Positions 8,859 to 60,704 of a stretch of 64,000 nucleotides of DNA are shown piece by piece. This DNA comes from Azorinus chamasolen. Lineage: Eukaryota; Mollusca; Bivalvia; Cardiida; Solecurtidae. The stretch spans positions 37,536,629 to 37,600,628 of the forward strand of contig OY755240.1 in assembly GCA_963576725.1 (NCBI GenBank). The letters are read 5' to 3'. Both the position numbers and the translations under genes were made by a program. The stretch's first letter is position 1, and the number at the start of each line of letters is the position of its first letter. The notes under the pieces are model-generated. The model saw nothing but the letters and a program-made list of their open reading frames with translations, made no database searches and was not told the DNA's origin.

Positions 8859-9019
8859 TTTAATAGACGGCCTTCAAATTGACCGAAGACGATTATGCAA
8901 CTTTGCGCTCGTGCTACCCGTGCAGCCTATGTACAGGTACAGATTAACCCTGACTGATATCCCTACTCGTTGTTCAATCATAAATCACAGTTCACATTTG
9001 AATTTCACTCGTAAGCAAG

Positions 9020-10801: not shown

Positions 10802-11769
10802 GCTAGACTTTAGTGTAAAATGGTGTCGCCGAGAACATGCAGACAATAGTGTCCTTACAAAATGGATAAAACAAATTTCAAATATAATGGATACACGTAT
10901 CGCGTTTTACAAATCTAACATTCACCTTCTTCCGCCTAAACCTAAGACGTTAGTTCGCTTCTTAAAAAATTGTATACAAGAAGTTCACTCTAAATACGTG
11001 TTTGTTCCAGCTGATAAAGCGTCAAACAATGTAATTATCGTTTAACGACTTTATTATGTGGATGTTAGAACAAGAACTCACTAAGACAAAGTCATTTATT
11101 GTGGTCTCTAAATCTGAAAACGACATAATATCTGAACATGTTAATAAATGTAAACAGTTCAATGCTGATATATTAATCACACATCATAAACTTCCGACAA
11201 TGTACTGGATACCTAAACTCCATAAAACGCCATATTAATCACGCTTCATAGCAAACTCTGTCTCATGCACAACAACCACACTATCCAAACTAATTACATC
11301 GTGTCTAACAGCGGTCAAAGAACATGTCGAGCGTTACTGCGATAAAGCTTATGAGAATTCAGGAATTAACCTTTTTTGGTCTATAAAAACTCCAAATGAG
11401 GTTTTAACTAAATTAAAAATCAAGCAACACCAAGCTGACACTATAAGCACATATGCTTTTTCTACACTTTATACCACATTACCACACGATCTAATAAAGA
11501 TCAAACTTACAAATATTATAAATAAAACATTTGCTAGAGAAAAAGTATCATTTATTGCCTGTAATTCTAGACATGCGTTCTTTACCAATGACATTACAAA
11601 TAAATATACTTCGTGGACATGTTTAGATGTTTGTGACGCAATTACGTTTCCGTTAGACAATATATGTGTTCGTTTTGGTAATTCTGTATATCGCCAGGTC
11701 ATTGGTATTCCCATGGGAACCAACTGTGCTCCTTTAAGTGCAGACTTGTTTTTGTATTAATATTGATAA
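10802..11769 (+). pseudogene. PLE-B: divergent Penelope-like reverse transcriptase, left part
   Basis: This is a Naiad-like RT clearly diverged from the other copies in the window. It begins inside the fingers region (FSVKWCRREHA), continues through FVPADKASNNVIIV, LPTMYWIPKLHK and YAFSTLYTTLPH (motif A) to GIPMGTNCAPLSADLFLY (motif B). It then jumps by an internal deletion to AATATTGATAA, the end of the 'FNIDN' segment after motif C. The catalytic YLDD is lost in that deletion. Disruptions include a TAA at 11043-11045, where other copies have in-frame UGA, a frameshift after it, and a TAA near 11236. The copy is interrupted at 11769 by a terminal repeat and resumes at 36642. Confidence 0.85.
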
Positions 11770-19685: not shown

Positions 19686-20527
19686 AAAGTACAAAAATGA
19701 GTCATGCAGGAAACACCACATACAGAACAAACAGTCGCCCGAACAGCAACACAAGGAACCAGCAAATGTACATAACTATAAAAACAACAAGAGACGCACA
19801 AAGACAAAACAAACACACAATAGGGGGAAGATGGAAGCACCGCCTTGGAACGGTCAGTGACAAAAAACACTGGGGGGTTAAACCGGTTTATGGGCGCCCA
19901 ACCTCACACTTATTCCATCCCCACCCTAAAAGACAAACAGTGTAAATAAGCGTATCCCCTCTCCGACTAATCTACACATCCGCGACGGCAAATACAATGG
20001 TAAAGTGCATGTATAACGAAAACATTTAAGTGAACAAACTGTATCCACCTATCGCTAGTGTACTCAATGATTGAGCTGCAAACAGAGTAACTGTAGAAAA
20101 GTAAAAAAGGGTACGACAAAAACGAAATAGTACAGATATCCGACGTTCTCCTTCCATTTCTGGATTTAAGAGGTCGCCTTCATAGAGTACTAAACCTTTC
20201 TTGTCGGCGTACATGCAAAGAGGCCAGCGTGATTGCCAACTGTAAAAGGGTTGACAACCAAACATGCAGTATGTTGTAGTACTACAGGATCATATCCCTT
20301 TTTAATGAATTTTTTAACATATTTGATGAACAAAGTGAGAAAATGGGTATGTCCAATAATTTTACGAAGTTTGTAAATCACATCACCATAACATTCAGGA
20401 TGTGAAACACCGTGTCGCAGAAGCTCCTTGAGATTAGATTGGTACTTGCCAATAAGCGAGAGATTTCGATAGTAAAATTTAGAATAAGTTTTTCTTAGTT
20501 TATGGTATCTGTATCCTTGCTTAAGCA
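19686..20527 (-). mobile_element. Naiad copy N1, 5'-truncated, minus strand
   Basis: Reading the minus strand, it starts in the RT C-terminal region (LKQGYRYHK) and runs through HPECYGDVIYKL to the conserved end CTPTRKV-TAG (stop 20192-20190). SECIS and the full 3' UTR follow, ending TTTTTGTACTTT at 19686. Its 5' end abuts a 30-bp plus-strand Naiad 3' tail (20528-20557), an inverted junction of the kind typical for Penelope-like elements. Confidence 0.88.
20128..20192 (-). promoter_or_regulatory. SECIS element (Naiad N1)
   Basis: Minus strand: TAGTAC/GTACTA helix I, AUGA/GGAU quartet, AAA bulge and TCCA-GAAA-TGGA ministem, as in the other copies. Confidence 0.8.
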
Positions 20528-20557: not shown

Positions 20558-20818
20558 TATTATCACAACAGTGTTGCTTGTGCCGTGTGGTGGCCGTAAA
20601 AAGTCTCCCCGTACACGTAATCGATGTTGTTATCATTCTCTTGCAGGATATGCAAGTAACATACACAACTCTCATTCGTCTCTTACATCATCATAAGTAT
20701 GTCATGCACCTCGTGGTAGGTGTTGTGTTCACCAACAATTTGATGCACTTGGTAGCTACACTAATGTAATTGACGTGTTGATGAACACAATACAGGTGCC
20801 CCTCTATCACCTTCCAAT
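20558..20818 (+). other. Probable 5' part of Naiad N2
   Basis: Short open stretches in two frames contain protein-like Cys/His-rich words. An upstream frame joins the ORF at 20819 only after a shift, so the true N-terminus is unclear. Confidence 0.4.
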
Positions 20819-21976
20819 ATGAATAAAGTTAAAATACCTCTAATAGAACTGAAAGCTATAAAAATGCAATCTGTGTCGTCTGTACAAGTACCCAGAGATA
20901 TTTCTAATTTCTCTTCCCTTCAACCTTTTGTTCGTTTAAAACAACTTAATCTTCAGTCGGCATCATCTTTTCACATACCATCTCTTTCTATTAATAAATG
21001 TTTTTTCAATGGACCAAGAGTTTTACTTTCACCTTTAAAATCTGTTATCCAAAATGTTTCTTCTATTCGTAAACGGTCCTTATACAAGCGACACAGAGTG
21101 TATCCGATTATCCAAAAGTGCTTTGCTAAGAGGTGCATATGTTGTAGTAACATTTCTTGTAACTCCACTATTAAATCCACAGTTAATGGTAGAACATTTA
21201 ATGCCAAGATAAACTCAGACGTTGATTGTACTACTACTAATGTTATTTATGTTTTAACTTGAAACGTGCCTAGTTGCGGTATACAGTACGTAGGACAAAC
21301 AGGACGTGCTTTGAAGACTCGATTTCGTGAGCATGCATATCAGTGTCGAAATCGTAAACTAAACAATTTTTTATACCAACACTTTCGGAAATCTGGCCAT
21401 TCTTTTAAAGATGTTTTAGTACAAATTGTTGAGCATATAACATATGATAAGGAGGCTACTAGTAGCTTTAAATCGAAAGCTAGATTTATATCTGAATTAA
21501 ATTGGATCAAAAAATTGCAAACACCTTTTCCTTTAGGACTGAATGATAATATTTACCAGACTGGAAATATTTCTAAAAAACCAGATATAGATATTTTTTC
21601 AATTTTTTCTATAAGAAAACGCAAATCTCGATCACATGGCATTCGCAAAAATGGTAATAATAAACGAAAATCTCGTTTGAAAATGAATCTTCTTGATCTA
21701 CATACTTTTCATCGAACTTCTGGTAAACATGCCATGCTTTCTAGACTTTCCTCCTTATCTATATGTTCATTAAAAGATATTGACGAGCAAGCCGATAAAA
21801 TCATTTTTAGATCAGATCCTCTCATAGGAACGGCTAGTTTGATACAAAGCTTTACTCTACATGTTCTCAGACCGCACATTGACAAATTATCTGAACACCA
21901 AAGATTCTTCTTGAAAATTCCTTTTATTAATAAAGGTATTGATTTTATTGACCTCCAAAGTATTTTAGAGACAATC
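20819..21976 (+). pseudogene. Naiad copy N2: N-terminal domain and GIY-YIG endonuclease
   Basis: This part of the Naiad protein carries the endonuclease, which nicks DNA for retrotransposition. A basic N-terminal region is followed by Cys-rich CICC (near 21140), VIYVLT, an in-frame UGA (21260-21262), then SCGIQYVGQTGRALKTRFREH and the catalytic-Glu region FISELNWIKKLQTPFPLGLN. The frame is the same on both sides of the UGA, and GIY-YIG residues (Tyr, YVG, Arg, Glu) are all present. The UGA occupies the first Cys of the CCHH finger found in PLE endonucleases. A long linker (LLDLHTF...HVLRPHIDKL) follows and the copy is cut near LQSIL at ~21976; the reading frame then runs into unrelated DNA to 22072. 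The domain lies upstream of the RT, the permuted order defining Naiad. Confidence 0.88.
21260..21262 (+). other. In-frame UGA, probable selenocysteine site U1
   Basis: It lies between VIYVLT and NVPSCGIQYVGQT. Standard PLE endonucleases have Cys here (L-x-C-x-x-C). No other stop occurs in this frame from 20819 to 22072. Confidence 0.8.
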
Positions 21977-22185
21977 AAAGTACTGACAGTACTGAAGGTT
22001 TCGGACCATATATATGTCGATTGTGACTATACAATACGAAAAAGCTTGGTAGGGAAGGACTGGTACCATTGATACATAGTAATGGAAAAGTAGTAAAGTC
22101 AAGCAGGCAAAGCCACATGCAAGACGCAACCACCACCAAAACACCGATAGACAGCATGACACACACGCACACAACCACACCCCCA

Positions 22186-22214
22186 AACGCACACACACAC
22201 ACACACACACACGA
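22186..22214. repeat. (CA)n microsatellite
   Basis: About 13 CA dinucleotides within an A/C-rich stretch (22100-22310). Confidence 0.85.
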
Positions 22215-22329
22215 ATGAACACAGAAAACACAAAAAGAGACACAAGAACCAGGGACAAACGTTCCACAACATGAACAAACCACAAGCACAAAGACGCAAG
22301 GCAAACAAAGATGACCTCTAAAGCATTAT

Positions 22330-22900
22330 TTCCTGAACTAAAATGGTGTTTAATGGAACTGTTTGTTAAAATTGACAGGTCATCTGAACATAAATTGCTG
22401 AGAACTTTTCTGAAAATCCTGTCAGTGTTTTAGATATTGTTTAAAGAAATAAATTGATGATTAGTAGCACACATTGCAGTTCCAATAGCTCAATTTGCCA
22501 CTGTGTGCCTTACTTTAATTGATATTTGAATGTAGTAAAGGGTCATTACTCTATTATTATTTGGCCGACGTTGTCGTCATATAATGTGCCTCATGCACCT
22601 ATCCATGTAAATACCCCGTCAAATTTAAATTTAATCTGAGTAAGCTGTTCCAAGATATGACTTCTAACAGTCACATTTCCTATATGGCTATCTGAAAGCA
22701 ACAAAGGGTCATATTTCTGCTACTTACTGGTGGATTGTAACAGTATTTGGCGTGCATCAGTCACTTATCCATCTATACACTACAACCACGTTTGGATAAA
22801 TTATATATACCATGTGAATCTAAATATCATACAGTTAACAAGATTTAATTATAACAGAATATGTTGCAGAATGTCCCCTAAACGAAACTTATACTGGTAT
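22330..22900. other. Unassigned AT-rich sequence
   Basis: No ORF or RNA gene recognised. Confidence 0.5.
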
Positions 22901-23800
22901 TGGTGAGCGAAATATCTAAATTTCAACCAATAACAGGCCATAAGTGATCACTTGGTTACCATGGCAACTAACACTTTTGAAACAACTGCATATATATCCC
23001 TACTGACCAATTTTCCGAAAAATCTAATATGTAAATTGTGACCCATTCAGAGGACACCACTCCATTACCATGGCAACCAAGTATTTCAAAACAACTTGAC
23101 TGAGTTTGGGGTATCCAAATACCCCTAAATGCCAATTTTCAGCAAATTTGAATATCTAAAATTTTGACCAGTCAGATCCCACCATTCAGTTTCCATACCA
23201 ACAAATCTTTTCCAAAGACATACCAATCAATTCTGAGTGTCAAAATATCCCGACATACCAATTTTTGGGCAAAATCGAACAATATCTGAATTTGTCGAAA
23301 AAGATCTAAATTTTCGACCAATCAGTGTCACCATTCAGTTACCATGGCAACCAATTCTTTAAAAAGACCTACAAATTAGTCCCGAGTGCCAAAATATACC
23401 GTCATACCAATTTTTAGGAAAATCAACCGATACATGTACTTTCGAAACCCATACCAATTGATTTGGAGTACTAAAATATCCCATGATACCAATTTTCAGC
23501 AAAAAATCGAATGATATATAACTTCGCCAAACAATATCTAAATTTCGACCAATTATAGCCAACCATTTAGTTATGGTGATTTTCAAAAAATAAAAAGTGG
23601 GTTGTACATCTGCATGTATCAAGCAATATTCATATGAAGTTTCATTAGGATCGGACAACTACTGAGAAATGCGTTGGACAAGTTCACGACGGAAGAAGAA
23701 GAATTTGAAGAATAAGAATCGGAAGAAAGAATAGTAAGAATAAGAAACGGAGCAAACACAATATGTCCCTCTACTCCATTTTGGGATATTATTAAATACC
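22900..23800 (+). repeat. Degenerate ~170-bp tandem repeat, M-type-like end
   Basis: The words 'accatggcaaccaa', 'aataccaatttt' and 'tctaaatttcgaccaat' recur four to five times at ~170-bp spacing. The tract ends 'acacaatatgtccctctactccatttt', resembling the AATATGTCTCCC end of M-type elements, after a purine-rich stretch. Non-coding. Confidence 0.65.
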
Positions 23801-24540
23801 AGGGGGTGAAAATAACAGCATGCTTGTATGTTAACACAGATTAATGCAGGGGGAAAAAGCTTAAACACACACTACAAACACAAATTTGTCAAGAATTATA
23901 TACGTTCAGCATATGTTATAATTAACATTATGTAAAACATACAATAAAATAATTCCACTATATCTCTTTTATAACTACTAACTCTCTATAATTGGAGTAA
24001 TTATCCTTAAATGCTTACAACCTGGTCTCCTATAAAGACATTATAAACATGGATCTTAGAGAACTGAAAAGTCTATGATCAATGTTTACGATGCTTGTCA
24101 CACATGATGTAAAAATATAATTATGATCTTCCAAACTCAACATAAATTCTTCTGATGCATTCAGATTACAGATTGCTTTTGAGACTCAAGGTTATCCATT
24201 TATCTCCGGGCGTTTCACTACGGTCCGTGCTCCTTCGTGCCGAAGGGTCGGTGCCGAATATTATGGTTTTTTTTTAGCTTTCTTCAACTTCAACTATAAC
24301 TACTTATTATGCAGTGAGCACTGAACATTAAATTTACGTATTTCAAATAATAAATATGGACAATATTAGCCAATAAGCTCGATAACAGGTTTTTCTAATA
24401 AAAAAAAAATGCTTAAATTGCGGCCGATTTTAGGCTGCGAAATTCATATCCGCGGATATGAGTCATACCCGTCATATCGGGTGTTTATACTGTATCTTGC
24501 AATTTCCAGTCGTTATCTTCATTCCCATAGTTCGTGTGTT
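23801..24540. other. Unassigned sequence with small hairpins
   Basis: 24218-24262 contains GC-rich inverted words (ccttcgtgccgaagg). No gene recognised. Confidence 0.5.
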
Positions 24541-24557
24541 ATGTGTAGAGATTGACG

Positions 24558-24797
24558 ATGTTCCGACTATTATTCATTACTGTTTTCTCCGTAACATTGT
24601 CTGTACCCAATCCGACAAATTCAAGAAATGCTTGTAGATTTCAAAATATCCGCCCGACTTTCAGAAGTCGATTATTTTCTGGGCCATTTTACCGGCGCTC
24701 TGTGGTATATATTCGTACGCAACCAAATTTATCATATAACGTAGCATTTTACATGGCAAAAATATTGGTAATTGAAACAGTTGCATCCGCATTTTAA
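24558..24797 (+). CDS. Small ORF with possible signal peptide (hypothetical)
   Basis: Starting at the ATG at 24558, an ORF of about 79 codons begins MFRLLFITVFSVTLS, a short basic start with a hydrophobic core followed by small and polar residues, as in secretory signal peptides. The remainder is Arg/Phe rich and ends VIETVASAF. A donor-like GTATAT lies at about 24704, so this could be a first exon. No homology is recognised and a chance ORF is quite possible. Confidence 0.2.
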   Translation: MFRLLFITVFSVTLSVPNPTNSRNACRFQNIRPTFRSRLFSGPFYRRSVVYIRTQPNLSYNVAFYMAKILVIETVASAF

Positions 24798-25148
24798 TAT
24801 TTGACACAAATACCAAATGAAGAATTATCGATATCGTTTATCCAACGCATTGCACTTGGAACTATATTCTTGTCTAGGGGTGTTAACAAAATCACATTTT
24901 TGGCAAAATGAAAGTAGAAATACGGGTGAAATACACCCGTAGACAACTAAATCGTTTAATCGGCGCTACGTGATAAACATTCTGTCAACGTTAAACCATT
25001 CAAAAGTTCTGCATTTTGGGCTAATGAACGTATGCATTGTAAGCATAAATTGATATTTCGTAGTATAACAGTGGTCTGATTGCGCATTATGGGATATGAA
25101 TTTCTTTATAAATTTGCTTGAAGCATGCCATGGGGATGCATTACTATT
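24798..25148. other. Unassigned sequence
   Basis: No ORF, repeat family or RNA gene recognised. Confidence 0.45.
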
Positions 25149-25174
25149 AGGTTTCGGAAAGTAGTCCGAAACCT
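25149..25174. repeat. Perfect small inverted repeat
   Basis: AGGTTTCGGA and TCCGAAACCT flank a 6-base loop, directly beside the 5' end of Naiad N3. Confidence 0.8.
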
Positions 25175-25324
25175 AAAAATGTAATTGACACTATTCCTAA
25201 ATACTTTAAAAATACAGAACCACCTATCATCTGCTACAAATATAACAAACCCATCAGAAATACAATTTTCAACTATAATAAAATTGTGACCGACCTTAAT
25301 ATTAATGATAATATTCCTGATAAT

Positions 25325-25327
25325 TGA
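25325..25327 (+). other. In-frame UGA, probable selenocysteine site U2 (N3)
   Basis: It reads N-U-D-C-ATSKFC: the UGA stands in the first Cys position of the CxC motif that characterises the Naiad linker. Confidence 0.75.
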
Positions 25328-25738
25328 GATTGTGCCACCTCAAAATTTTGCTATTCTCCGGCTGGTCATGTGATTACTGGTAATTTTGAGATAACTAAAG
25401 ATAAACGTCTACGATCTCTTTTGAATAAAGGTCCCAAATATAGAATACCATCCTTGATAGATTTTAACTCTTGTCGAGTTCAGATTGCGGAGGCTTTACA
25501 AAATTTTAGTATTAAATGGTGTCGAAGAGAACATGTTGAGTCTAATGCTCTTTCTAGTTGGAAAAAACTAATTTTTGATATAATTGATAAACGCATTTCC
25601 TTTTATAGCTCTAATAAACACCTTCTTCCACCTAAACCTAGAATTTCTTTTAGACATCTTAAAAAGAGTTTACAGGATTTCCATTCTAAATACGTTTTTG
25701 TTCCTGCTGATAAGGCATCGAATAATGTGATTATTATT

Positions 25739-25741
25739 TGA
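25739..25741 (+). other. In-frame UGA, probable selenocysteine site U3 (N3)
   Basis: It lies between NNVIII and RLHYIEVL in the RT fingers, and the frame continues on both sides. Confidence 0.7.
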
Positions 25742-26786
25742 CGATTACATTATATCGAGGTCTTGAAGCAGGAAATTATTAATACCAAGTCATACATTTC
25801 AGTTACTGCTGACGAAAAGACCATCGTTTCAGACCATGTCAAAAAGTGTGAACAACTTGGAACCAATATTAAAATTACACAACATAAACTTCCTACAATG
25901 TATTGGTTACCAAAACTACATAAAAAAACCATATAAAGCGCGTTTCATTGCAAATTCTAGTTCATGTACAACTACTAAATTGTCTATACTTTTGACTTCT
26001 TGTTTAACGAAGGTAAAGGAACATGTAAAATTCTACTGTGATAAGACTTATGAAAATTCTGGAATAAATCTCTTCTGGTCTATTAAGAACTCTTCAGAAG
26101 TCTTAAACAAACTTAACATATGATAAGGAGGCTACTAGTAGCTTTAAATCGAAAGCTAGATTTATATCTGAATTAAATTGGATCAAAAAATTGCAAACAC
26201 CTTTTCCTTTAGGACTGAATGATAATATTTACCAGACTGGAAATATTTCAAAAGAACCAGATATAGATATTTTTTCATTTTTTTCTATTAGAAAACGCAA
26301 ATCTCGGTCACATGGCATTCGCAAAAATGGTAATATTAAACGAAAATCTCGTTTGAAAATGAATCTTCTTGATCTACATACTTTACGCCTTACTTCGGGT
26401 AAACATGCCATGCTTTCTATACTTTCCTCCTTATCTATATGTTCATTAAAAGAAATTGACGAGCAAGCCGATAAAATTATTTTTAGATCAGATCCTCTCA
26501 TAGGAACGGCTAGTTTGATACAAAGCTTTACTCTACATGTTCTCAGACCGCACATTGACAAATTATCTGAACACCAAAGATTCTTCTTAAAAATTCCTTT
26601 TATTAATAAAGGTATTGATTTTATTGACCTCCAAAGTATTATGTAATCGACACTATTCCTAAATACTTTAAAAATACAGAACCACCTATCATCTGCTACA
26701 AATATAACAAACCCATCAGAAATACAATTTTCAACTATAATAAAATTGTGGCCGACCTTAATATTAATGATAATATTCCTGATAAT

Positions 26787-26789
26787 TGA
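26787..26789 (+). other. In-frame UGA, selenocysteine site U2 (N4)
   Basis: Same position and context (DN-U-DC) as in N3 and N7. Confidence 0.75.
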
Positions 26790-27200
26790 GATTGCGCCAC
26801 CTCAAAATTTTGCTATTCTCCGGCTGGTCATGTGATTACTGGTAATTTTGAGATAATTAAAGATAAACGTCTACGATCTCTTTTGAATAAAGGTCCCAAA
26901 TATAGAATACCATCCTTGATAGATTTTAACTCTTGTCGAGTTCAGATTGCGGAGGCTTTACAAAATTTTAGTATTAAATGGTGTCGAAGAGAACATGTTG
27001 AGTCTAATGCTCTTTCTTGTTGGAAAAAACTAATTTTTGATATAATTGATAAACGCATTTCCTTTTACAGCTCTAATAAACACCTTCTTCCACCTAAACC
27101 TAGAACTTCTTTTAGACATCTTAAAAAGGGTTTACAGGATTTCCATTCAAAATACGTTTTTGTTCCTGCTGATAAGGCATCGAATAATGTGATTATTATT

Positions 27201-27203
27201 TGA
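27201..27203 (+). other. In-frame UGA, selenocysteine site U3 (N4)
   Basis: Same position as in N3 and N7; the reading frames on either side match. Confidence 0.7.
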
Positions 27204-27440
27204 CGATTACATTATATCGATGTCTTGAAGCAGGAAATTATTAATACCAAGTCATACATTTCAGTTACCACTGACGAAAAGACCATCATTTCAGACCATG
27301 TCAAAAAGTGTGAACAATTTGGAACCGATATTAAAATTACACAACATAAACTTCCTACAATGTATTGGTTACCAAAACTACATAAAAAACCATATTAAGC
27401 GCGTTTCATTGCAAATTCTAGTTCATGTACAACTACTAAA

Positions 27441-28574
27441 TTGTCTATACTTTTGAATTCTTGTTTAACGAAGGTAAAGGAACATGTAAAATTCTACTGT
27501 GATAAGACTTATGAAAATTCTGGAATAAATCTCTTCTGGTCTATTAAGAACTCTTCAGAAGTCTTAAACAAACTTAAGAACAAAAGGTATCTTGCATCCA
27601 CTGTAAGCACGTACGATTTTTCTACTCTGTACACAACTCTTCCTCATATTCTAATTAAGGATAAGCTTACTAACTTAATCCAGAAAGTATTTGCACGGGA
27701 AAAAACATCATTCTTGGCATGTAATGCTGAAAAAGCTTTCTTTACTGACGAGCAAATGAAATATTACACCAATTGGACTTGCTCAGAAGTTTGCGAAGCA
27801 CTTACCTTTCTTTTGGATAACATATTTGTACGTTATGGGAATGCTATATACCGTCAGGTAATTGGTATTCCTATGGGTACGAATTGTGCACCACTTGTCG
27901 TAGATTTGTTTTTGTACTGCTATGAGAGAGATTTCATGTTGCGTTTGAATCCTCAATCACAAGAAGATGTTATAAAAGCCTTCAATGAAACTTGTCGATA
28001 TTTGGATGATATTTTTAACTTAGATAACCCTTTCTTTGATGCTCTGATTCCTACAATTTATCCTAAAGAACTCAAATTGAATAAAGCTAACCCGTCCGAC
28101 AATTATGCAGCGTTTCTTGATCTCGACCTTAAAATTAATAATGGATTGATTTCTTCTAAAATATATGACAAAAGAGATGATTTTGATTTTAATATTGTAA
28201 ATTTTCCTCATCTTGACGGGGATGTTCCCCGTGCTCCATCTTACGGGGTTTATATATCTCAACTTATTCGTTTTGCTAGAGCTTGTTCATCTATTGACGA
28301 TTTTAACAGTCGAAATCTCATTTTAACTGAAAAGCTGCTTAAGCAAGGATATAGATACCATAAACTAAGAAAAACTTTCTCTAAATTTTACTATCGAAAT
28401 CTCTCGCTTATTGGCAAGTACCAATGTAATCTCAAGGTGCTTCTGCGACACGGTATTTCACATCCTGAATTTTATGGTGATGTGATTTACAAACTTCTTA
28501 AAATATTGGACATTTTCTCACTTCGTTCATCAAATGTGTTAAACAATTCATTAAAAAGGGATATGATCCTGTAG
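27441..28574 (+). pseudogene. Naiad reverse transcriptase core (N4)
   Basis: An open stretch of 377 codons covers RT motifs A to E and the start of the C-terminal part. All catalytic Asp residues are present (YDFST, YLDD). It is the best preserved RT segment here, but it is separated from its upstream half by the TAA at 27396 and loses frame near 28505, where other copies read KLRKIIGHTHFLTLF. Confidence 0.9.
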
Positions 28575-28663
28575 TACTACAACATACTGCATGTTTGGTT
28601 GTCAACCCTTTTACAGTTGGCAATCACGCTGGCCTCTTTGCATGTACGCCGACAAGAAAGGTT

Positions 28664-28728
28664 TAGTACTCTATGAAGGCGACCTCTTAAATCCAGAAAT
28701 GGAAGGAGAACGTCGGATATCTGTACTA
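28664..28728 (+). promoter_or_regulatory. SECIS element (Naiad N4)
   Basis: Helix I TAGTAC/GTACTA includes the UAG stop. AUGA sits opposite GGAU, followed by an ~11-bp helix, the AAA bulge and the TCCA-GAAA-TGGA ministem. Confidence 0.85.
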
Positions 28729-28850
28729 TTTCATTTTTGTCCTACCCTTTATTACTTTTCTACAGTTACTCTGTTTGCAGCTCAATCATTGAGTACACTA
28801 GCGATAGGTGGATACAGTATGTTCAATTAAATGTTTTTCAGCGGTTAGCT

Positions 28851-30365
28851 GTCTATTTTCTCTTTTGTTCTAGTTTTCCACCAATCAGAAACTATGTTAC
28901 ATTGTAATTTGCATATGACCTACTACGATTTTCTAGTAAAACGTATTTTCATTAGTTAATCCATTGACTGGCATACAGCCTTTTTATAATGCCTCTACAC
29001 ATGGCCAAACTGAATGTAGGACGTTTCGGCATAGGAAGTTTCGCCCCGGATGTTTCGGCCCAGAACGTTTTGGCCATCTATTTATTCGGCCCAGGACGTT
29101 TCGGCAAAAATTGAAAATTTGTAGTAAAAAGCAAAAATTGAATAATCAAAATCATTAAATAACTATCTATATGTTAAATATTGATATGTGGTCCATTTTT
29201 TTTGGTTTATACAGATCAGGATATTAGCTAAGCAGGTGACATATTCACACTTACTCAACCTTGGGTACAATGAGTGATAAAGAGGTGCTTTCAAATACTA
29301 TAGTCACATAGTTTAGTCATAAAAACAGCCTGAGACAACATTACTAATGATTTACTATCCCATTCAGTTTTGATTTTAGTCTTGGTCCATACTGTTTGCC
29401 ACTCACTTTATGCTTTTTGTTTTCAGTCAAAATGTTGTTTAGTTCAACTTTTGGTGGATTCAAATACATGTACAATACTGTAGTCACATAGTTGTTTATT
29501 ACCATGACCGGTAAAACAATATGAATTATTTATTACTTTGGCCATTATCAAAACTAGAGTATATAATACATAAACAATATTACTGAATAAAACTATATAG
29601 ATCTATTATCCACAAAAGGTGTGGATCAATTTTGACTATTCAATTTTTGGTGTGTCATACTTTATATCAGTTCCTAACCCATTATCGTACTTATCACCTC
29701 ATGGTAATGATTGCTGAGCATTTTTGCCAGTTTGCCAAAACCACTATTAAACTTTTAAACATTTATTATCATTTTCCTTACGGCTCTATCACCTGGCGCT
29801 TTGGATCAAGTAGTAGGTTGAGATAGCTAACTTTATATTGTTTTAAAAATACATGTATATTCAGTTAATGGTGTCACTAATGATGATGCACACACGCCAA
29901 TTAATGCGTTGATCCAGGCTATAGATAAATACCTTTCTTTAAGTAATTACAGCCTCTGCACAAACAAAAACTAAATTCTGTATGCTTTATTTAAAGTGTA
30001 TTCAATTAGTTATCTTCATATCAATATAAATATACATGCTTTCAAGTAAATTTTTATAATAGGTAAAATGAAGAACTAACTTCCGATAGTTTTAAAAAAA
30101 TACTTTTACATTGTATATTTTAATAGTGATGTCCTATAAAAGTAACTTGATTTTTTCCATAATTGCTTATTCTACTCCAAGTCATTTCCATTGCATGCTT
30201 CTCTGCTAGTATAATTACAAGCAACCCTTCATAGATCTAGTTCCCTGTACTAACAGAATTTCGAAACATTGAAATTAAGTTGGCAGAGATTTAATATCAT
30301 TATTGTTTTGTACATTATGTCAATATTTGAATGCCGCTGAATATCTTTTTAAAAGATATTTCTTG
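28851..30365. other. Unassigned AT-rich region with a small degenerate repeat
   Basis: 29015-29112 repeats the word 'ggacgtttcggcc' about five times with drift. No gene is recognised elsewhere. It may be internal sequence of the surrounding LTR-type element. Confidence 0.5.
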
Positions 30366-30706
30366 TTTCGTTATACATGCACTTTACCATTGTATTTGCC
30401 GTCGCGGTTGTTGTAGATTAGTCGGAGAGGGGATACGTTTATTTACACTGTTTGTCTTTTAGGGTGGGGATGGAATAAGAGTGAGATTGGGCGCCCATAA
30501 ACCGGTTTAACCCCCCAGTGACTTTTGTCACTGACCGTTCCAAGGCGGTACTTCCATCTTCCTCCTATTGTATGTTTGTTTTGTCTTTGTGTGTCTCTTG
30601 TTGTTTTTTCTAGTTATGTACATTTGCTGTTTCCTTGTGTTGCTGTTCGGGCGAGTGTTTGTTCTGTATGTGGTGTTTCCTGCATGACTCATTTTTGTAC
30701 TTTTAA
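30366..30706 (+). repeat. Naiad N5: isolated 3' UTR acting as pseudo-LTR
   Basis: The sequence matches the Naiad 3' UTR (gttatacatgcactttacc to tttttgtactttt) and is fused directly upstream of copy N6. A 3'-end repeat ahead of a truncated copy is the pseudo-LTR arrangement known for Penelope-like elements. Confidence 0.85.
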
Positions 30707-32311
30707 GAACAAAAGGTATCTTGCATCCACTGTAAGCACGTACGATTTTTCTACTCTGTACACAACTCTTCCTCATATTTTAATTAAGGATAAGCTTACT
30801 AACTTAATCCAGAATGTATTTGCCCGGGAAAAAACATCATTCTTGGCATGTAATACTGAAAAAGCTTTCTTTACTGACGAGCAAATGAAATATTACACCA
30901 ATTGGACTTGCTCAGAAGTTTGCGAATCACTAACCTTTCTTTTGGATAACATATTTGTACGTTATGGGAATGCTATATACCGTCAGGTAATTGGTATTCC
31001 TATGGGTACGAATTGTGCTCCACTTGTCGCAGATTTGTTTTTGTACTGCTATGAGAGAGATTTCATGTTGCGTTTGAATCCTCAATCACAAGAAGATGTT
31101 ATAAAAGCCTTCAATGAAACTTGTCGATATTTGGATGATATTTTTAACTTAGATAACCCTTTCTTTGATGCTCTGATTCCTACAATTTATCCTAAAGAAC
31201 TCAAATTGAATAAAGCTAACCCGTCCGACAATTGTGCAGCGTTTCTTGATCTCGACCTTAAAATTGATAATGGAATGATTTCTTCTAAAATATATGACAA
31301 AAGAGATGATTTTGATTTTAATATTGTTAATTTTCCTCATCTTGACGGGGATGTTCCCCGGGCTCCCATCTTACGGGGTTTATATATCTCAACTTATTCG
31401 TTTTGCTAGAGCTTGTTCATCTATTGACGATTTTAACAGTCGAAATCTCATTTTAACTGAGAAACTGCTTAAGCAAGGATATAGATACCATAAACTAAGA
31501 AAAACTTTCTCTAAATCTTACTATCGAAATCTCTCGCTTATTGGCAAGTACCAATGTAATCTCAAGCCGCTTCTGCGACACGGTATTTCACATCCTGAAT
31601 TTTATGGTGTTGTGATTTACAAACTTCGTAAAATTATTGGACATACCCATTTTCTCACTTTGTTCATCAAATATGTTAAAAAATTCATTAAAAAGGGATA
31701 TGATCCTGTAGTACTACAACATACTGCATGTTTGGTTGTCAACCCTTTTACAGTTGGCAATCACGCTGGCCTCTTTGCATTTACGCCGACAAGAAAGGTT
31801 TAGTACTCTATGAAGGCGACCTCTTAAATCCAGAAATGGAAGGAGAACGTCGGATATCTGTACTATTTCGTTTTTGTCGTACCCTTTATTACTTTTCTAC
31901 AGTTACTCTGTTTGCAGCTCAATCATTGAGTACACTAGCGATAGGTGGATACAGTTTGTTTACTTAAATGTTTTCGTTATACATGCACTTTACCACTGTA
32001 TTTGCCGTCGCGGTTGTTGTAGATTAGTCGGAGAGGGGATACGTTTATTTACACTGTTTGTCTTTTAGGGTGGGGATGGAATAAGTGTGAGGTTGGGCGC
32101 CCATAAACCGGTTTAACCCCCCAGTGACTTTTGTCACTGACCGTTCCAAGGCGGTACTTCCATCTTCCCCCTATTGCATGTTTGTTTTGTCTTTGTGCGT
32201 CTCTTGTTGTTTTTATAGTTATGTACATTTGCTGTTTCCTTGTGTTGCTGTTCGGGCGACTGTTTATTCTGTATGTGGTGTTTCCTGCATGACTCATTTT
32301 TGTACTTTCAG
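30707..32311 (+). mobile_element. Naiad copy N6, 5'-truncated, with complete 3' end
   Basis: It starts at KNKRYLASTVSTYDF just before RT motif A, runs through YLDD to TRKV-TAG (31801-31803), and has the SECIS and complete 3' UTR to TACTTT at 32311. An extra C near 31370 shifts the frame (two open parts: to 31409 and from 31294). It is followed immediately by N7 in inverted orientation. Confidence 0.9.
31801..31865 (+). promoter_or_regulatory. SECIS element (Naiad N6), reference copy
   Basis: Helix I 31801-31806 pairs with 31860-31865. UGAA 31811-31814 faces GGAU 31852-31855, giving the tandem G.A/A.G core. Helix II 31815-31825 pairs with 31841-31851 at 9 of 11 positions. The unpaired AAA is 31826-31828. 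Ministem 31829-31832/31837-31840 closes a GAAA loop. This meets the form-2 eukaryotic SECIS pattern; the stop codon lies inside helix I. Confidence 0.87.
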
Positions 32312-33433
32312 TTAAAATGAGATTTCGACTGTTAAAATCGTCAATAGATGAACAAGCTCTAGCAAAACAAATAAGTTGAGATATATAAACCCCGTAAGAT
32401 GGAGCACGGGGAACATCCCCGTCAAGATGAGGAAAATTAACAATATTAAAATCAAAATCATCTCTTTTGTCATATAATTTAGAAGAAATCATTCCATTAT
32501 CAATTTTAAGGTCTAGATCAAGAAACGCTGCATAATTGTCGGACGGGTTAGCTTTATTCAATTTGAGTTCTTTAGGATAAATTGTAGGAATCAGAGCATC
32601 AAAGAAAGGGTTATCTAAGTTAAAAATATCATCCAAATATCGACAAGTTTCATTGAAGGCTTTTATAACATCTTCTTGTGATTGAGGATTCAAACGCAAC
32701 ATGAAATCTCTCTCATAGCAGTACAAAAACAAATCTGCGACAAGTGGAGCACAATTCGTATCCATAGGAATACCAATTACCTGACGGAATATAGCATTCC
32801 CATAACTGTAAAATATGTTATCCAAAAGAAAGGTTAGTGATTCGCAAACTTCTGAGCAAGTCCAATTGGTGTAATACTTCATTTGTTTGTCAGTAAAGAA
32901 AGCCTTTTCAGCATTACATGCCAGAAATGATATTTTTTTCCCGGGCAAATACTTTCTGGATTAATTAGTCAGTTTATCTTTAATTAAAATATGAGGAAGA
33001 GTTGTGTACAAAGTAGAAAAATCGTACATGCTTACAGTGGATGCAAGATACCTTTTGTTCTTAAGTTTGTTTAAGACTTCTGAAGAGTTCTTAATAGACC
33101 AGAAGAGATTTATTCCAGAATTTTCATAAGTCTCATCACAGTATAACCTTACATGTTCCTTTACCTTCGTTAAACAAGAAGTCAAAAGTATAGACAATTT
33201 AGTAGTTGTACATGAACTAGAATTTGCAATGAAACGCGCTTTATATGGTTTTTATGTAGTTTTGGTAACCAATACATTGTAGGAAGTTTATGTTGTGTAA
33301 TTTTAATATCGGTTCCAAGTTGTTCACACTTTTTGACATGGTCTGAATCGATGGTCTTTTCGTCAGTAGTAATTGAAATGTATGACTTGGTATTAATAAT
33401 TTCCTGCTTCAAGACATCGATATAATGTAATCG

Positions 33434-33436
33434 TCA
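33434..33436 (-). other. In-frame UGA, selenocysteine site U3 (N7)
   Basis: Minus strand context VIII-U-RLHYI, as in N3 and N4. Confidence 0.7.
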
Positions 33437-33829
33437 AATAATAATCACATTATTCGATGCCTTATCAGCAGGAACAAAACGAATTTTGAATGGAAATCCT
33501 GTAAACCCTTTTTAAGATGTCTAAAAGAAATTCTAGGTTTAGGTGGAAGAAGGTATTTATTAGAGCTATAAAAGGAAATGCGTTTATCAATAATATCAAA
33601 AATTAGTTTTTTCCAACTAGAAAGAGCATTAGACTCAACATGTTCTCTTCGACACCATTTAATACTAAAATTTTGTAAAGCCTCCGCAATCTGAACTCGA
33701 CAAGGATGGTATTCTATATTTGGGACCTTTATTCAAAAGAGATCGTAAACGTTTATCTTTATTTATCTCAAAATTACCAGTAATCACATGACCAGCCGGA
33801 GAACAGCAAAATTTTGAGGTGGCGCAATC

Positions 33830-33832
33830 TCA
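33830..33832 (-). other. In-frame UGA, selenocysteine site U2 (N7)
   Basis: Minus strand context DN-U-DCA, as in N3 and N4. Confidence 0.75.
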
Positions 33833-34479
33833 ATTATCAGGAATATTAATATTAAGGTCGGCCACAATTTTATTATAGTTGAAAATTGTATTTCTGATGG
33901 GTTTGTTATATTTGTAGCAGATGATAGGTGGTTCTGTATTTTTAAAGTATTTAGGAATAGTGTCAATTATATTTTTGTCTCTAAAAATACTTTGGAGGTC
34001 AATAAAATAAATACCTTTATTAATAAAAGGAATTGTCAAGAAGAATATTTGGTGTTCAGATAATTTGTCAATGTGCGGTCTGAGAACATGTAGAGTAAAG
34101 CTTTGTATCAAACTAGCCGTTCCTATGAGAGGATCTGATCTAAAATTAATTTTATCGGCTTGCTCGTCAATATCTTTTAATGAACATATAGATAAGGAGG
34201 AAAGTCTAGAAAGCATGGCATGTTTGCCAAAAGTTATACGTAAAGTATGTAGATCAAGAAGTTAATAGTTCTACTGCATATAAAACACCAAAGAACTGAA
34301 TACTGTATATTAAAATCCAGAATGAAACGTAAAATTACTGAATTGAAGAATTCAAACACATTAAAAAAGCTATAAGATTGAAGATGTATGTACCGTCCAA
34401 ATGTAAAAGTAATAAGTATATAGTAAACTGTCAATGAAACTGGAATTCAACAACATCCTGTAGCTGGTGACATTCCATG

Positions 34480-35172: not shown

Positions 35173-35320
35173 GTTTAGTTTGGGGAAGAATTTGGATTTA
35201 GCTCAAATCTGGCAGTGTCTGCTCGTTTGAATGGGGAATATGAATTTGCTCAAACCGGTAGAGTCCACTCGCTTTGTGAAAGTTCCGAAAAAGTGTACAG
35301 CACAAAATATATGTGAGTAC

Positions 35321-35615: not shown

Positions 35616-36410
35616 AAGCAAGGATATAGATACCATAAACTAAGAAAAACTTTTTCTAAATTTTACTATCGAAATCTCTCGCTTATTGGCAAGTACCAAT
35701 CTAATCTCAAGGAGCTTCTGCGACACGGTGTTTCACATCCTGAATTTTATGGTGATGTGATTTACAAACTTCGTAAAATTATTGGACATACCCATTTTCT
35801 CACTTTGTTCATCAAATATGTTAAAAAATTCATTAAAAAGGGATATGATCCTGTAGTACTACAACATACTGCATGTTTGGTTGTCAACCCTTTTACAGTT
35901 GGCAATCACGCTGGCCTCTTTGCATGTACGCCGACAAGAAAGGTTTAGTACTCTATGAAGGCGATCTCTTAAATCCAGAAATGGAAGGAGAACGTCGGAT
36001 ATCTGTACTATTTCGTTTTTGTCAATCATTGAGTACACTAGCGATAGGTGGATACAGTTTGTTCACTTAAATGTTTTCGTTATACATGCATTTTACCACT
36101 GTATTTGCCGTCGAGTTTGTTGTAGATTAGTCGGAGAGGGATACGTTTATTTACACTGTTTGTCTTTTAGGGTGGGGATGGAATAAGTGTGAGGTTGGGC
36201 GCCCATAAACCGGTTTAACCTCCCAGTGACTTTTGTCACTGACCGTTCCAAGGCGGTGCTTCCATCTTCCCCCTATTGTATGTTTGTTTTGTCTTTGTGC
36301 GTCTCTTGTTGTTTTTATAGTTATGTACATTTGCTGTTTCCTTGTGTTGCTGTTCGGGCGACTGTTTGTTCTGTATGTGGTGTTTCCTGCATGACTCATT
36401 TTTGTACTTT
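35616..36410 (+). mobile_element. Naiad copy N8 inside terminal repeat 2
   Basis: It is 5'-truncated at KQGYRYHKLRKTF, carries an open C-terminal reading to TRKV-TAG (35946-35948), the SECIS and the 3' UTR with a short deletion near 36023. CTTT flanks it on both sides (35612-35615 and 36407-36410). The intact site in repeat 1 reads gtgtctttgtctaac, so the borders are known to within the CTTT overlap. Confidence 0.92.
35946..36010 (+). promoter_or_regulatory. SECIS element (Naiad N8)
   Basis: Same fold as N6. A C-to-T change at 35965 turns a C.A mismatch of helix II into a T-A pair. Confidence 0.82.
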
Positions 36411-40282: not shown

Positions 40283-41573
40283 GGAAAAAAGCTTTCTTTA
40301 CTGACAAGCAAATGAAATATTACACCAATTGGACTTGCTCAGAAGTTTGCGAATCACTAAACTTTCTTTTGGATAACACATTTGTACGTTATGGGAATGC
40401 TATTTACCGCCAGGTAATTGATATTCCTATGGGTACGAATTGTGCATCACTTGTCGCATATTTGTTTTTGTACTGCTATGAGAGAGATTTCATGTTACGT
40501 TTGAATCCACAATCACAAGATGTTATAAAAGCCTTCAATGAAACTTCTCAATATTTGGACGATATATTTAACTTAGATAACCCTTTATTTGACGTTCCGA
40601 TTCCTACAATTTATCCTGAAGAACGCAAATTGAATAAAGCTAACCCGTCCGACAATTATGCAGCGTTTCTTGATCTAGACCTTAAAATTGATAATGGAAT
40701 GATTTCTTCTAATATATATGACAAAAGAGATGATTTTGATTTTAATATTGTAAATTTCTCTCATCTTGACGGAGATGTTGTTTATATATCTCAACTTATT
40801 CGGTTTGCTAGAGCTTGTTCATCTGTTGACGATTTTAGCAATCGAAATCTCATTTGAACTGAAAAGCTGCTTAAGCAAGGATATAGATACCATAAACTAA
40901 CAAAAACTTTCTGTAAATTTTGTAAATCTCTCACTTATTGGCAAGTACCAATGTAATCTCAATGCACTTCTGCGACACGGTAATTCACATCCTGAATTTT
41001 ATGGTGATGTGATTTACAAACTTCGTAAAATTATTGGACATACCCATTTTCTCACTTCAAATATGTTGGCAATCACGCTGGCCTCTTTGCATGTACGCCG
41101 ACAAGAAAGGCTTAGTACTCCATGAAAGCGACCTCTTAAATCCAGAAACGGAAGGAGAACGTCGGATATCTGTACTATTTCGTTTTTGTCGTACCCTTTT
41201 TTACTTTTCTACAGTTACTCTGTTTGCAGCTCAATCATTGAGTACACTAGCGATAGGTGGATACAGTTTGTTCACTTAAATGTTTTCATTATACATGCAC
41301 TTTACCACTGTATTTATCCTTGTCTTTTAGGGTGGGGATGGAATAAGTGTGAGGTTGGGCGCCCATAAACCGGTTTAAACCCCGAGTGACTTTTGTCACT
41401 GACCGTTCCAATGCGGTACTTCCATCTCCCCCTAGTGTATGTTTGTTTTCTCTTTGTGCGTCTCTTGATGTTTTTATAGTTGTGTACATTTGCTGTTTCC
41501 TTGTGTTGTTGTTCGGGTGGCTGTTTGTTCGTTCTGTATGTGGTGTTTCCTGAATGATTCATTTTTGTTCTTT
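40283..41573 (+). mobile_element. Naiad copy N9, 5'-truncated and degenerate
   Basis: It starts at KAFFTDKQMKYYTNW before motif B. YLDDIFNLDN is present. The VPRAPSYG segment is deleted, a TTA-to-TGA change ends the frame at 40855, and there are deletions near 40920 and 41060. The 3' UTR is complete except for an internal deletion at 41315. Confidence 0.88.
41113..41177 (+). promoter_or_regulatory. SECIS element (Naiad N9), decaying
   Basis: Helix I, AUGA/GGAU and AAA are kept. One helix II pair and one ministem pair are lost (AAGCGAC; CGGA). Confidence 0.7.
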
Positions 41574-41628: not shown

Positions 41629-42327
41629 GATTTACAAACTTCGTAAAATTATTGGACATACCCATTTTCTCACTTTGTTCATCAAATGTGTTAAACAATT
41701 CATTAAAAAGGGATATGATCCTGTAGTACTACAACATACTGCATGTTTGGTTGTGAACCCTTTTACAGTTGGCAATCACGCTGGCCTCTTTGCATGTACG
41801 CCGACAAGAAAGGTTTAGTACTCTATGAAGGCGACCTCTTAAATCCAGAAATGGAAGGAGAACGTCGGATATCTGTACTATTTCATTTTTGTCGTACCCT
41901 TTATTACTTTTCTACAGTTACTCTGTTTGCAGCTCAATCATTGAGTACACTAGCGATAGGTGGATACAGTATGTTCAATTAAATGTTTTTTCGTTATACA
42001 TGCACTTTACCATTGTATTTGCCGTCGCGGTTGTTGTAGATTAGTCGGAGAGGGGATACGTTTATTTACACTGTTTGTCTTTTAGGGTGGGGATGGAATA
42101 AGAGTGAGGTTGGGCGCCCATAAACCGGTTTAACCCCCCCAGTGACTTTTGTCACTGACCGTTCCAAGGCGGTACTTCCATCTTCCTCCTATTGTATGTT
42201 TGTTTTGTCTTTGTGTATCTCTTGTTGTTTTTTCTAGTTATGTACATTTGCTGTTTCCTTGTGTTGCTGTTCGGGCGAGTGTTTGTTCTGTATGTGGTGT
42301 TTCCTGCATGACTCATTTTTGTACTTT
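41629..42327 (+). mobile_element. Naiad copy N10, short 5'-truncated copy
   Basis: It starts at 'gatttacaaacttcg', is open to TRKV-TAG (41816-41818), and has SECIS and full 3' UTR. It is flanked by CTTT (41625-41628 and 42324-42327) within a B-type monomer whose intact form reads 'gcctttt(a)aggttt'. Confidence 0.9.
41816..41880 (+). promoter_or_regulatory. SECIS element (Naiad N10)
   Basis: Identical to the N6 copy in all paired and core positions checked. Confidence 0.85.
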
Positions 42328-53249: not shown

Positions 53250-53740
53250 ACATAACAAAGGGCAATAATTCTAACAACTATATGTTTCTATTGAAAACTA
53301 GTCCGCCCGGGGGCAGGGGAGGGAAAATTTTGACCCAATGGGCACAATTTATATAACTTTTGTAGAGGACCTGAACATGATGCTATGTGCCAAATATGAA
53401 AGCTGAGATCCCTGTTGATTCAGAGGAGAAGATTTTTAAAGTTTGCACTATATGTTTCTATTGAAAACTGGCTATCCCTGGGATGGGGCCAATTTTGATC
53501 CCAGGGGCATATAACTTTTGTAGAGGACCTGAACATGATGCTATGTGCCAAATATGAAAGCTGAGAACCTTCCAGTTTCAGAGGAGATGATATTCAAAGT
53601 TTTCACAATATATTTCTATAGACAAGAGGGCCAGAATGGCATCGCTCACCAGACAATCAGGAGAGAAGATTTTCAAAGATTACACTATATGTTTCTATAG
53701 AAAACTAGCCGGCCCTGGGGTGGGGCAAATTTTAATTCTG
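53250..53740 (+). repeat. A-type monomers and a second A-type 5' end
   Basis: Two monomers (53285-53620) are followed by a fresh 5' hairpin at 53625 (agggccagaatggc) and half a monomer. Confidence 0.78.
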
Positions 53741-59697: not shown

Positions 59698-60704
59698 GAC
59701 AATTATGCAGCGTTTCTTGACCTAGACCTTAAAATTAATAATGGAATGATTTCTTCTAAAATATATGACAAAAGAGATGATTTTGATTTTAATATTGTAA
59801 ATTTTCCTCATCTTGACGGGGATGTTCCCCGTGCTCCATCTTACGGGGTTTATATATCTCAACTTATTCGTTTTGCTAGAGCTTGTTCATCTATTGACGA
59901 TTTTAACAGTCGAAATCTCATTTTAACTGAAAAACTTCTTAAACAAGGATATAGATACCATAAACTAAGAAAAACTTTCTCTAAATTTTACTATCGAAAT
60001 CTCTCGCTTATTGGCAAGTACAAATGTAATCTCAAGGTACTTTTGCGACACGGTATTTCACATCCTGAATTTTATGGTGATGTGATTTACAAACTTCGTA
60101 GAATTATTGGACATACCCATTTTCTCACTTTGTTCATCAAATATATTAAACAATTCATTAAAAAGGGATATGATCCTGTATTATTACAACATACTGCATG
60201 TTTGGTTGTGAACCCTTTTACAGTTGGCAATCACGCTGGCCTCTTTGCATGTACGCCGACAAGAAAGGTTTAGTACTCTATGAAGGCGACCTCTTAAATC
60301 CAGAAATGGAAGGAGAACGTCGGATATCCGTACTATTTCATTTTTGTCGTACCCTTTATTACTTTTCTACAGTTACTCTGTTTGCAGCTCAATCATTGAG
60401 TACACTAGCGATAGGTGCATACAGTATGTTCAATTAAATGTTTTTGTTATACATGCACTTTTAGGATGGGGATGGAATAAGGGTGAGGTTGGGCGCCCAT
60501 AAACCGGTTTAAACCCCCGGTGACTTTTGTCACTGACCGTTCCAAGGCGGTACTTCCATCTTCCTCCTATTGTATGTTTGTTTTGTCTTTGTGCGTCTCT
60601 TATTGTTTTTTCTACCCATGTACATTTTCTGTTTCCTTGTGTTGCTGTTCGGGCGAGTGTTTGTTCTGTATGTGGTATTTCCTGCATGACTCATTTTTGT
60701 ACTT
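59698..60704 (+). mobile_element. Naiad copy N11, 5'-truncated, ORF end intact
   Basis: Starts at DNYAAFLDLDLKINNGM and is open for 191 codons to TRKV-TAG (60271-60273) without disruption. SECIS and a 3' UTR with one deletion (near 60460) follow. Flanks are left tataACT and right gtACTTTTGTAGAGG, against the monomer's tataacttttgtagagg. Confidence 0.92.
60271..60335 (+). promoter_or_regulatory. SECIS element (Naiad N11)
   Basis: Same fold as N6; one T-to-C change lies in the 3' internal loop (atatccg). Confidence 0.85.

What the first reader, a model, noticed from the sequence alone, without database searches (positions are those of the whole stretch)
20819..34262. Naiad retrotransposon with three UGA codons at conserved Cys positions
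UGA occurs in frame at the first Cys of the endonuclease CCHH finger (21260), at the first Cys of the CxC linker (25325, 26787, 33830) and in the RT fingers (25739, 27201, 33434). U2 and U3 are kept in three of three Naiad copies although other lesions differ between copies. Selenocysteine in clam Naiads is published; the per-site pattern here is direct sequence observation.
Basis: partly seen in the sequence, partly recalled or inferred. Interest (0 to 1): 0.9.

Follow-up and report, generated by a model that had tools for sequence, protein, structure and literature searches.

The report
Selenocysteine-coding Naiad retrotransposon in a clam-like genome
This stretch holds broken copies of a jumping gene whose enzyme appears to be made by reading three "stop" signals as the rare amino acid selenocysteine, a kind I recall as already reported from clams.

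Summary
The UGAs are at the stated places. One further, older window copy has TAA at the third site (11043).
The window lies in an unnamed 1.72-Gb genome. At 74 distinct places of two subfamilies cut from it (71 readable), the three codons are TGA at 149 of 152 sites, TAA at 2, TGC at 1, TAG at 0. One copy of each subfamily compared: synonymous sites saturated, dN/dS about 0.05-0.07 after U2 and U3. The SECIS shows compensating changes between subfamilies; one passes Rfam's SECIS_1 cut-off, the window's does not. In longer relatives the three positions are nearly always Cys.
Best reading: an autonomous Naiad Penelope-like element encoding one protein with three selenocysteines. The kind is known: Craig et al. 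2021, whose content I recall and could not read. Additions here: a fourth Cys position that may be Sec in relatives, site-by-site Cys/Sec mixing, and a terminator codon inside the SECIS stem.

The parts
20774..22072 (+). 5' part of a Naiad copy: N-terminal region and GIY-YIG endonuclease, interrupted by one TGA (U1); Naiad homology traced to about 21988
   Evidence: Pfam PF01541 24.8 bits, cut-off 22.6
21227..21229 (+). TGT (Cys) at the fourth site U0, which shows Trp letters in some relatives (possible UGA there)
21260..21262 (+). U1: in-frame TGA at a Cys of the endonuclease
25238..26114 (+). linker and start of the RT, copy a, ending at a junction with another Naiad fragment (26113-26643)
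25325..25327 (+). U2: TGA at the first position of the CxC linker motif (copy a)
25739..25741 (+). U3: TGA in the RT (fingers by recall), copy a
26700..28663 (+). linker, RT and tail, copy b; carries its own stop at 27396-27398 and a frame change near 28511
26787..26789 (+). U2: TGA (copy b)
27201..27203 (+). U3: TGA (copy b)
28664..28732 (+). SECIS-type hairpin beginning at the TAG terminator (28664-28666)
   Evidence: Rfam SECIS_1 26.0 bits, E 0.0044; R1 94.3 bits, but this copy is in the model; fold
32307..34261 (-). Naiad copy c (linker, RT), with frame lesions
33830..33832 (-). U2: TGA (copy c)
33434..33436 (-). U3: TGA (copy c)
10806..11763 (+). divergent, decayed subfamily-B RT fragment
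11043..11045 (+). U3 position of the divergent copy: TAA, not TGA
20124..20192 (-). SECIS-type hairpin after a Naiad tail
31801..31869 (+). SECIS-type hairpin after a Naiad tail (RT fragment 30702-31800)
35946..36014 (+). SECIS-type hairpin after a Naiad tail
41113..41181 (+). SECIS-type hairpin after a Naiad tail, weaker fold
41816..41884 (+). SECIS-type hairpin after a Naiad tail
60271..60339 (+). SECIS-type hairpin after a Naiad tail

Best explanation
These are broken copies of a Naiad-type Penelope-like retrotransposon whose working copies encode a single protein of roughly 1,060 residues (start codon not determined): an N-terminal GIY-YIG endonuclease, a CxC linker, then a telomerase-like reverse transcriptase. 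Three Cys positions (one in the endonuclease, the first of CxC, one early in the RT) are encoded by UGA. The host's selenocysteine machinery reads these as Sec, directed by a SECIS hairpin in the 3' untranslated region. The hairpin starts at the true terminator, which is UAG or UAA and never UGA in the copies seen, so the terminator is not itself open to recoding. Shown by sequence: the codons, their conservation, the open and selected frame past the sites, the hairpin and its covariation, and the Cys relatives. Inferred: that Sec is actually inserted, that the residues bind metal or act in redox chemistry, and that copies with these features drive transposition.
For: TGA at 149 of 152 distinct sites, 74 places, 71 readable. 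148 of the 150 scored hits have an open frame of exactly the 137 residues between U2 and U3, that is, a stop at both. Equal codon spacing in both subfamilies (288, 138 and 490 codons) and dN 0.18-0.21 with saturated dS; dN/dS 0.074 (U2-U3) and 0.053 (U3-stop), one A and one B copy. SECIS at the terminator: seven window copies, E 0.0044, 36.3 bits over the cut-off of 35 in B. On 12 hairpins (10 distinct) 95.2% of cells pair, 6 pairs change on both sides, and slid controls pair 42-55%. Terminator next to the hairpin: 45 TAA, 37 TAG, 0 TGA of 82 matches (duplicates included). Cys at all four sites in 76 of 110 new longer relatives, the other 34 mostly not covering U0 and U1. L062, read as DNA at about 30% identity, has Cys at U0-U3, and neither L062 nor L061 gave an Rfam SECIS hit at E up to 1. 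Domain order: P0344 passes both cut-offs with GIY-YIG before RVT_1; P0305, P0320 and P0287 show the same order with RVT_1 below its cut-off. The RT model's 12 best PDB matches are telomerases.
Against: Subfamily A's hairpin is below Rfam's gathering score (26 against 35). Two of five covariation measures do not beat the shuffles: pairs changed on both sides 62 of 500, further pair types 488 of 500. Nothing shows translation or Sec insertion. tRNA-Sec in this genome was asked for but not answered. One B copy has TAA at U1 and one, the window's, TAA at U3. With exact flanks, the changed U3 codons that I searched for (13 TAA, 9 TGG, 7 TGT, 1 TGC) look like plain decay, so conservation among young copies proves descent, not selection; the weight rests on A against B and on the Cys relatives. 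Pfam finds no RT domain in the window's own RT piece.
Confidence: 0.93

Rival explanations
1. The UGAs are ordinary nonsense mutations of a founder copy, spread because its RNA was mobilised in trans by intact elements.
For: The window's copies are broken, and many young copies share the UGAs by descent alone.
Against: Two subfamilies saturated at synonymous sites keep all three as UGA, with dN/dS about 0.05-0.07 past U2 and U3; all three fall on Cys positions of relatives; the SECIS changes by covariation.
Confidence: 0.03
2. The UGAs are read through by ordinary suppression (Trp or another residue), without selenium.
For: Some relatives in the protein collection show W at exactly these sites: U2 9 and U3 10 of 240.
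Against: Of the alignment columns with at least two W and two C, C plus W make up more than 90% of residues only at the four sites; the next columns reach 80% and 54%. Nearly all other uninterrupted relatives have Cys there, and a SECIS would then have no role.
Confidence: 0.03
3. UGA really terminates: the element makes separate endonuclease, linker and RT proteins by reinitiation.
For: The pieces between UGAs are long open frames.
Against: U1 (residue 163 of the translated window piece) lies inside the GIY-YIG match, residues 157-250, so the cut would fall within a domain; the same positions are plain Cys inside longer uninterrupted proteins of relatives.
Confidence: 0.02

Closest known systems
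Naiad Penelope-like elements with selenocysteine (Craig, Yushenova, Rodriguez, Arkhipova 2021, doi 10.1093/molbev/msab225, PMC8557442; seen here only as a reference-list entry, content recalled)
   Same: N-terminal GIY-YIG endonuclease, CxC linker, RT, very high copy number, in-frame UGA at Cys positions; recalled abstract: Naiads in spiders and clams independently encode selenoproteins with several selenocysteines
   Different: Could not be compared site by site because the paper is not held. Which of the four-site pattern, the subfamilies and the terminator-in-SECIS arrangement it already reports is unknown to me.
Rfam RF00031 SECIS_1 (eukaryotic SECIS)
   Same: AUGA/GA core, AAA before the apical helix, helix I and II; passes the cut-off in subfamily B
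   Different: Subfamily A scores 26 bits, below the cut-off; helix I includes the stop codon
Cys-encoding Naiad-like proteins (for example P0287 Pinctada imbricata, P0344, contig L062)
   Same: Same domain order; Cys at all four sites
   Different: No UGA at the sites; no Rfam SECIS found in L061 or L062, the only two looked at

Membership tests
Naiad (N-terminal endonuclease Penelope-like element) | GIY-YIG endonuclease N-terminal to the RT (recalled definition) | tested here: met
   Window endonuclease PF01541 24.8 bits, cut-off 22.6; its frame continues into the RT in L017 and L027. P0344 passes both cut-offs in that order; P0305, P0320 and P0287 pass for GIY-YIG with RVT_1 below cut-off; P0251 and the window's RT piece show no RVT_1
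Naiad (N-terminal endonuclease Penelope-like element) | CxC motif in the linker (recalled) | tested here: met
   U-x-C here; Cys at residue 440 in all 118 of 121 relatives that cover it, and C (111), W (6) or L (1) at 438
Naiad (N-terminal endonuclease Penelope-like element) | CCHH finger in the endonuclease (recalled) | tested here: inconclusive
   U1, the following Cys (C in 91 of 91 that cover it) and nearly invariant His residues; metal binding not tested
Naiad (N-terminal endonuclease Penelope-like element) | RT related to telomerase, with an insertion in the fingers (recalled) | tested here: inconclusive
   Top 12 Foldseek matches are telomerase, E 2.8e-4 to 2.5e-2, but TM-scores are about 0.2 and the model has mean pLDDT 62; the insertion was not delimited
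Naiad (N-terminal endonuclease Penelope-like element) | Tandem or inverted, truncated insertions (recalled) | tested here: met
   Head-to-tail units at about 3,961 bp (A) and 4,483 bp (B) from the places listed; inverted fragments in the window
Naiad (N-terminal endonuclease Penelope-like element) | Placement in a tree of Penelope-like RTs | not tested
   No reference set of named elements was built
Eukaryotic selenoprotein gene | In-frame UGA aligned with Cys of homologues | tested here: met
Eukaryotic selenoprotein gene | SECIS in the 3' UTR, with core quartet and covarying stems | tested here: met
   Core letters and pairing; three of five covariation measures beat all 500 shuffles, two do not
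Eukaryotic selenoprotein gene | Rfam SECIS_1 gathering score | tested here: inconclusive
   Reached in subfamily B (36.3 of 35), not reached in subfamily A (26.0); nothing at gathering score in the whole window
Eukaryotic selenoprotein gene | Host Sec machinery (tRNA-Sec) | not tested
   Requests not answered
Eukaryotic selenoprotein gene | Sec in the protein | not testable with these tools
   Needs protein data

The most novel reading that the evidence does not exclude
Selenium supply gates transposition. Full-length endonuclease-RT needs three serial Sec insertions, so its yield would fall steeply when Sec decoding is weak. Lineages tune this by swapping Sec and Cys at four positions one by one, while the terminator is locked into the SECIS stem as UAG or UAA.
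Probability: 0.2. Interest if true: 0.75.

Novelty: new member of a known kind. Interest (0 to 1): 0.42.

Why it matters
A selfish element that needs selenocysteine at several positions is unusual: Sec is costly and inefficient (general knowledge), and these look like structural Cys positions rather than classic redox sites (inference). The data make it testable whether Sec gives a gain (metal binding, redox control, or a selenium-dependent brake) or is drift held in place by a SECIS. They also warn that ordinary annotation breaks such elements into 'pseudogene' pieces.

Tried and rejected
Rfam at gathering score found nothing in the whole window; the hairpin appeared only with a restricted region and an E-value threshold. 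Pfam on the whole read-through protein and on P0005 gave 0 families at E up to 0.1; of the two window pieces only the endonuclease passed a cut-off, and the RT piece showed no RT domain. A PDB sequence search gave only one chance-level hit, E 0.77. The endonuclease model is poor (pLDDT 48.7); its best fold match is I-TevI at E 0.26, used only as a hint. A viral-contig scan gave no relatives. A genome-contig scan gave five contigs filed under bacteria, of which two (L061, L062) cover at least one UGA site. The source DNA of the W-bearing proteins could not be reached, so W = UGA stays an inference. In the alignment I added 11 earlier proteins to the 110 new ones (9 of the 11 bear W at a site) and left out P0008-P0010, which one search shows with Cys at U3; some single states there may be alignment slips (P0177 and P0007). 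An earlier column scan also lists columns with a single W or C in a column dominated by the other, for example 231 and 773. Seven literature searches listed no paper that I recognised as reporting Naiad selenoproteins; the 2021 paper is not held.
Full report
What was checked. U1 is seen in one copy, U2 in three and U3 in three.

Genome copies. The window lies at G000:C6:37536629-37600628 of an unnamed 1.72-Gb genome in 137 contigs. A search with the 137 residues between U2 and U3 had 10,320 candidates; the 150 scored all match at 100%, so this family ("A") is large and young. In 148 of these 150 the open frame is exactly 137 residues, meaning a stop at both U2 and U3; the two others have 507 (L004) and 445 (not fetched). 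A 35-base pattern around U3 with TGA occurs 2,719 times with up to two mismatches. Thirty A loci were cut out. U1 is TGA in 12 of 12 readable copies, U2 in 29 of 30 (the other TGC, L004) and U3 in 30 of 30. In L013, L017, L019, L025 and L027 the only in-frame stops between codons -420 and 620 from U2 are these three TGAs; L017 then ends at TAG.

A second subfamily. Searching with the divergent window copy gave subfamily "B"; 30 loci were cut by that search and 20 longer ones fetched. Six of the 20 are places already held, so there are 44 distinct places. With these duplicates removed, U1 is TGA in 13 of 14 (one TAA, L085), U2 in 25 of 25 and U3 in 40 of 41 (one TAA, L031, the window copy). Sites that could not be aligned were not counted; three places (L036, L039, L041) have no readable site. 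Over A and B: 149 TGA, 2 TAA, 1 TGC, 0 TAG of 152.

Selection. One A copy (L017) against one B copy (L034): protein identity 69-75%, DNA identity 70-72%, dN 0.18 (U1-U2), 0.21 (U2-U3) and 0.18 (U3-stop). Synonymous sites are saturated, dS being infinite by the formula, 2.8 and 3.4, so dN/dS is 0.074 and 0.053 where it can be computed. The spacing of sites and terminator is the same in both (288, 138 and 490 codons). The frame after each UGA has therefore been under purifying selection as the same frame, while unconstrained positions have randomised. Young copies alone would not show this: with exact flanks the changed U3 codons searched for are 13 TAA, 0 TAG, 9 TGG, 7 TGT and 1 TGC (four of the TGT lie in one tandem array), which looks like ordinary decay. 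The other single-step codons, the exact TGA count and U2 did not complete.

The SECIS. Straight at the terminator lies a hairpin with AUGA, an AAA before the apical helix and GA on the 3' side. Rfam SECIS_1 matches the window copy with 26.0 bits, E 0.0044, below the gathering score of 35, and B with 36.3 bits, above it. Against dinucleotide shuffles, six of seven window copies fold at z -1.9 to -2.9 and the one at 41113 at z -0.6. A third 3' end ("C", L004, L032, L045) has its own version. On 12 hairpins (10 distinct) the named structure pairs in 95.2% of cells; 20 cells and 6 pairs change on both sides. Slid structures pair 42-55%, and 0 of 500 shuffles reach the covariation score, the percentage paired or the number of cells changed on both sides, though 62 of 500 reach the number of both-side pairs and 488 of 500 reach the number of extra pair types. 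The sequences fall into three groups, so events are fewer than cells. The third base of the terminator is inside helix I and changes with its partner (GC in A, apart from the odd A copy; AU in B; GU in C). A regular-expression scan of the fetched loci and the window found 82 terminators beside the hairpin: 45 TAA, 37 TAG, 0 TGA (duplicate places included). A covariance model built from these hairpins finds seven copies in the window and none in L061-L064 at E up to 1.

Relatives. Of 240 related proteins from two searches, all that the two listings showed (1,017 and 237 matched), U2 is an apparent stop (the protein ends just before the site) in 63, Cys in 46, Trp in 9 and Asn in 1; U3 is a stop in 40, Cys in 19 and Trp in 10; U1 was rarely covered (4 W, 1 C); the remainder do not cover the site. 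A third search for longer proteins gave 110 new ones; 76 of the 110 read Cys at all four sites. With 11 earlier proteins added (9 of them bearing W at a site), the 121 read: U0 77 C, 5 W, 3 D, 1 P; U1 84 C, 5 W, 1 R, 1 A; U2 111 C, 6 W, 1 L; U3 111 C, 6 W; the others have a gap or do not reach the site. Among columns with at least two W and two C, C plus W exceed 90% only at 139, 150, 438 and 576; the next reach 80% and 54%. Three of the four are U1-U3; the fourth (U0) is TGT in this genome, in 12 of 12 A and 9 of 9 distinct B copies that could be read. I read the W at the four sites as TGA translated with a code in which TGA is Trp; this is inference, because the DNA was out of reach. Distant contig L062 has Cys at all four in DNA and no Rfam SECIS.

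What it is. The endonuclease piece passes Pfam's GIY-YIG cut-off. Relative P0344 passes both cut-offs with GIY-YIG before RVT_1; P0305, P0320 and P0287 show the same order with RVT_1 below its cut-off; the window's own RT piece shows no RVT_1. The RT of the Cys relative P0005 matches telomerase best, on a modest model with low TM-scores. Copies occur head to tail (about 3,961 bp in A, 4,483 bp in B, from places). This fits Naiad Penelope-like elements as I recall them from Craig et al. 2021, seen here only as a reference (passages). I recall that its abstract says Naiads in spiders and clams encode selenoproteins with several selenocysteines; if so, the central finding is known.

Verdict. A confirmed, well-supported member of a published kind, with useful details: SECIS at the terminator, covariation across three 3' ends, the same three UGAs in two deeply diverged subfamilies, and a probable four-site Cys/Sec mosaic. 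Not shown: translation, Sec insertion, activity, or the host's Sec machinery.

Noticed in passing
window 1-8858: Head-to-tail array of a 2,544-bp unit with 100% identical copies and no ATG/GTG/TTG-started ORF of 110 aa or more overlapping 1-9600; a recent satellite or an assembly effect.
   Followed up: partly
window 51887-53588, 58805-59763 and related copies from 42356: Repeats with a spacing of about 165 bp, satellite-like, in the same stretch as Naiad fragments.
   Followed up: no
L004 (G000:C16:2615089-2618499): A-type body with TGC (Cys) at U2 joined to a C-type 3' end: a natural Cys variant and a chimera.
   Followed up: partly
G000:C18:57989922-58001840: Four copies spaced about 3,961 bp with TGT (Cys) at U3: a Cys variant multiplied in tandem.
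   Followed up: no
terminator and SECIS, for example window 28664-28732: The stop codon lies in SECIS helix I and its third base changes together with its partner between subfamilies.
   Followed up: partly
window 34480-35202 (-): A 240-aa open frame (stop to stop) next to the Naiad cluster, not identified.
   Followed up: no
L061, L062: Naiad-like contigs filed under bacterial MAGs: probably eukaryote contamination of genome bins.
   Followed up: partly
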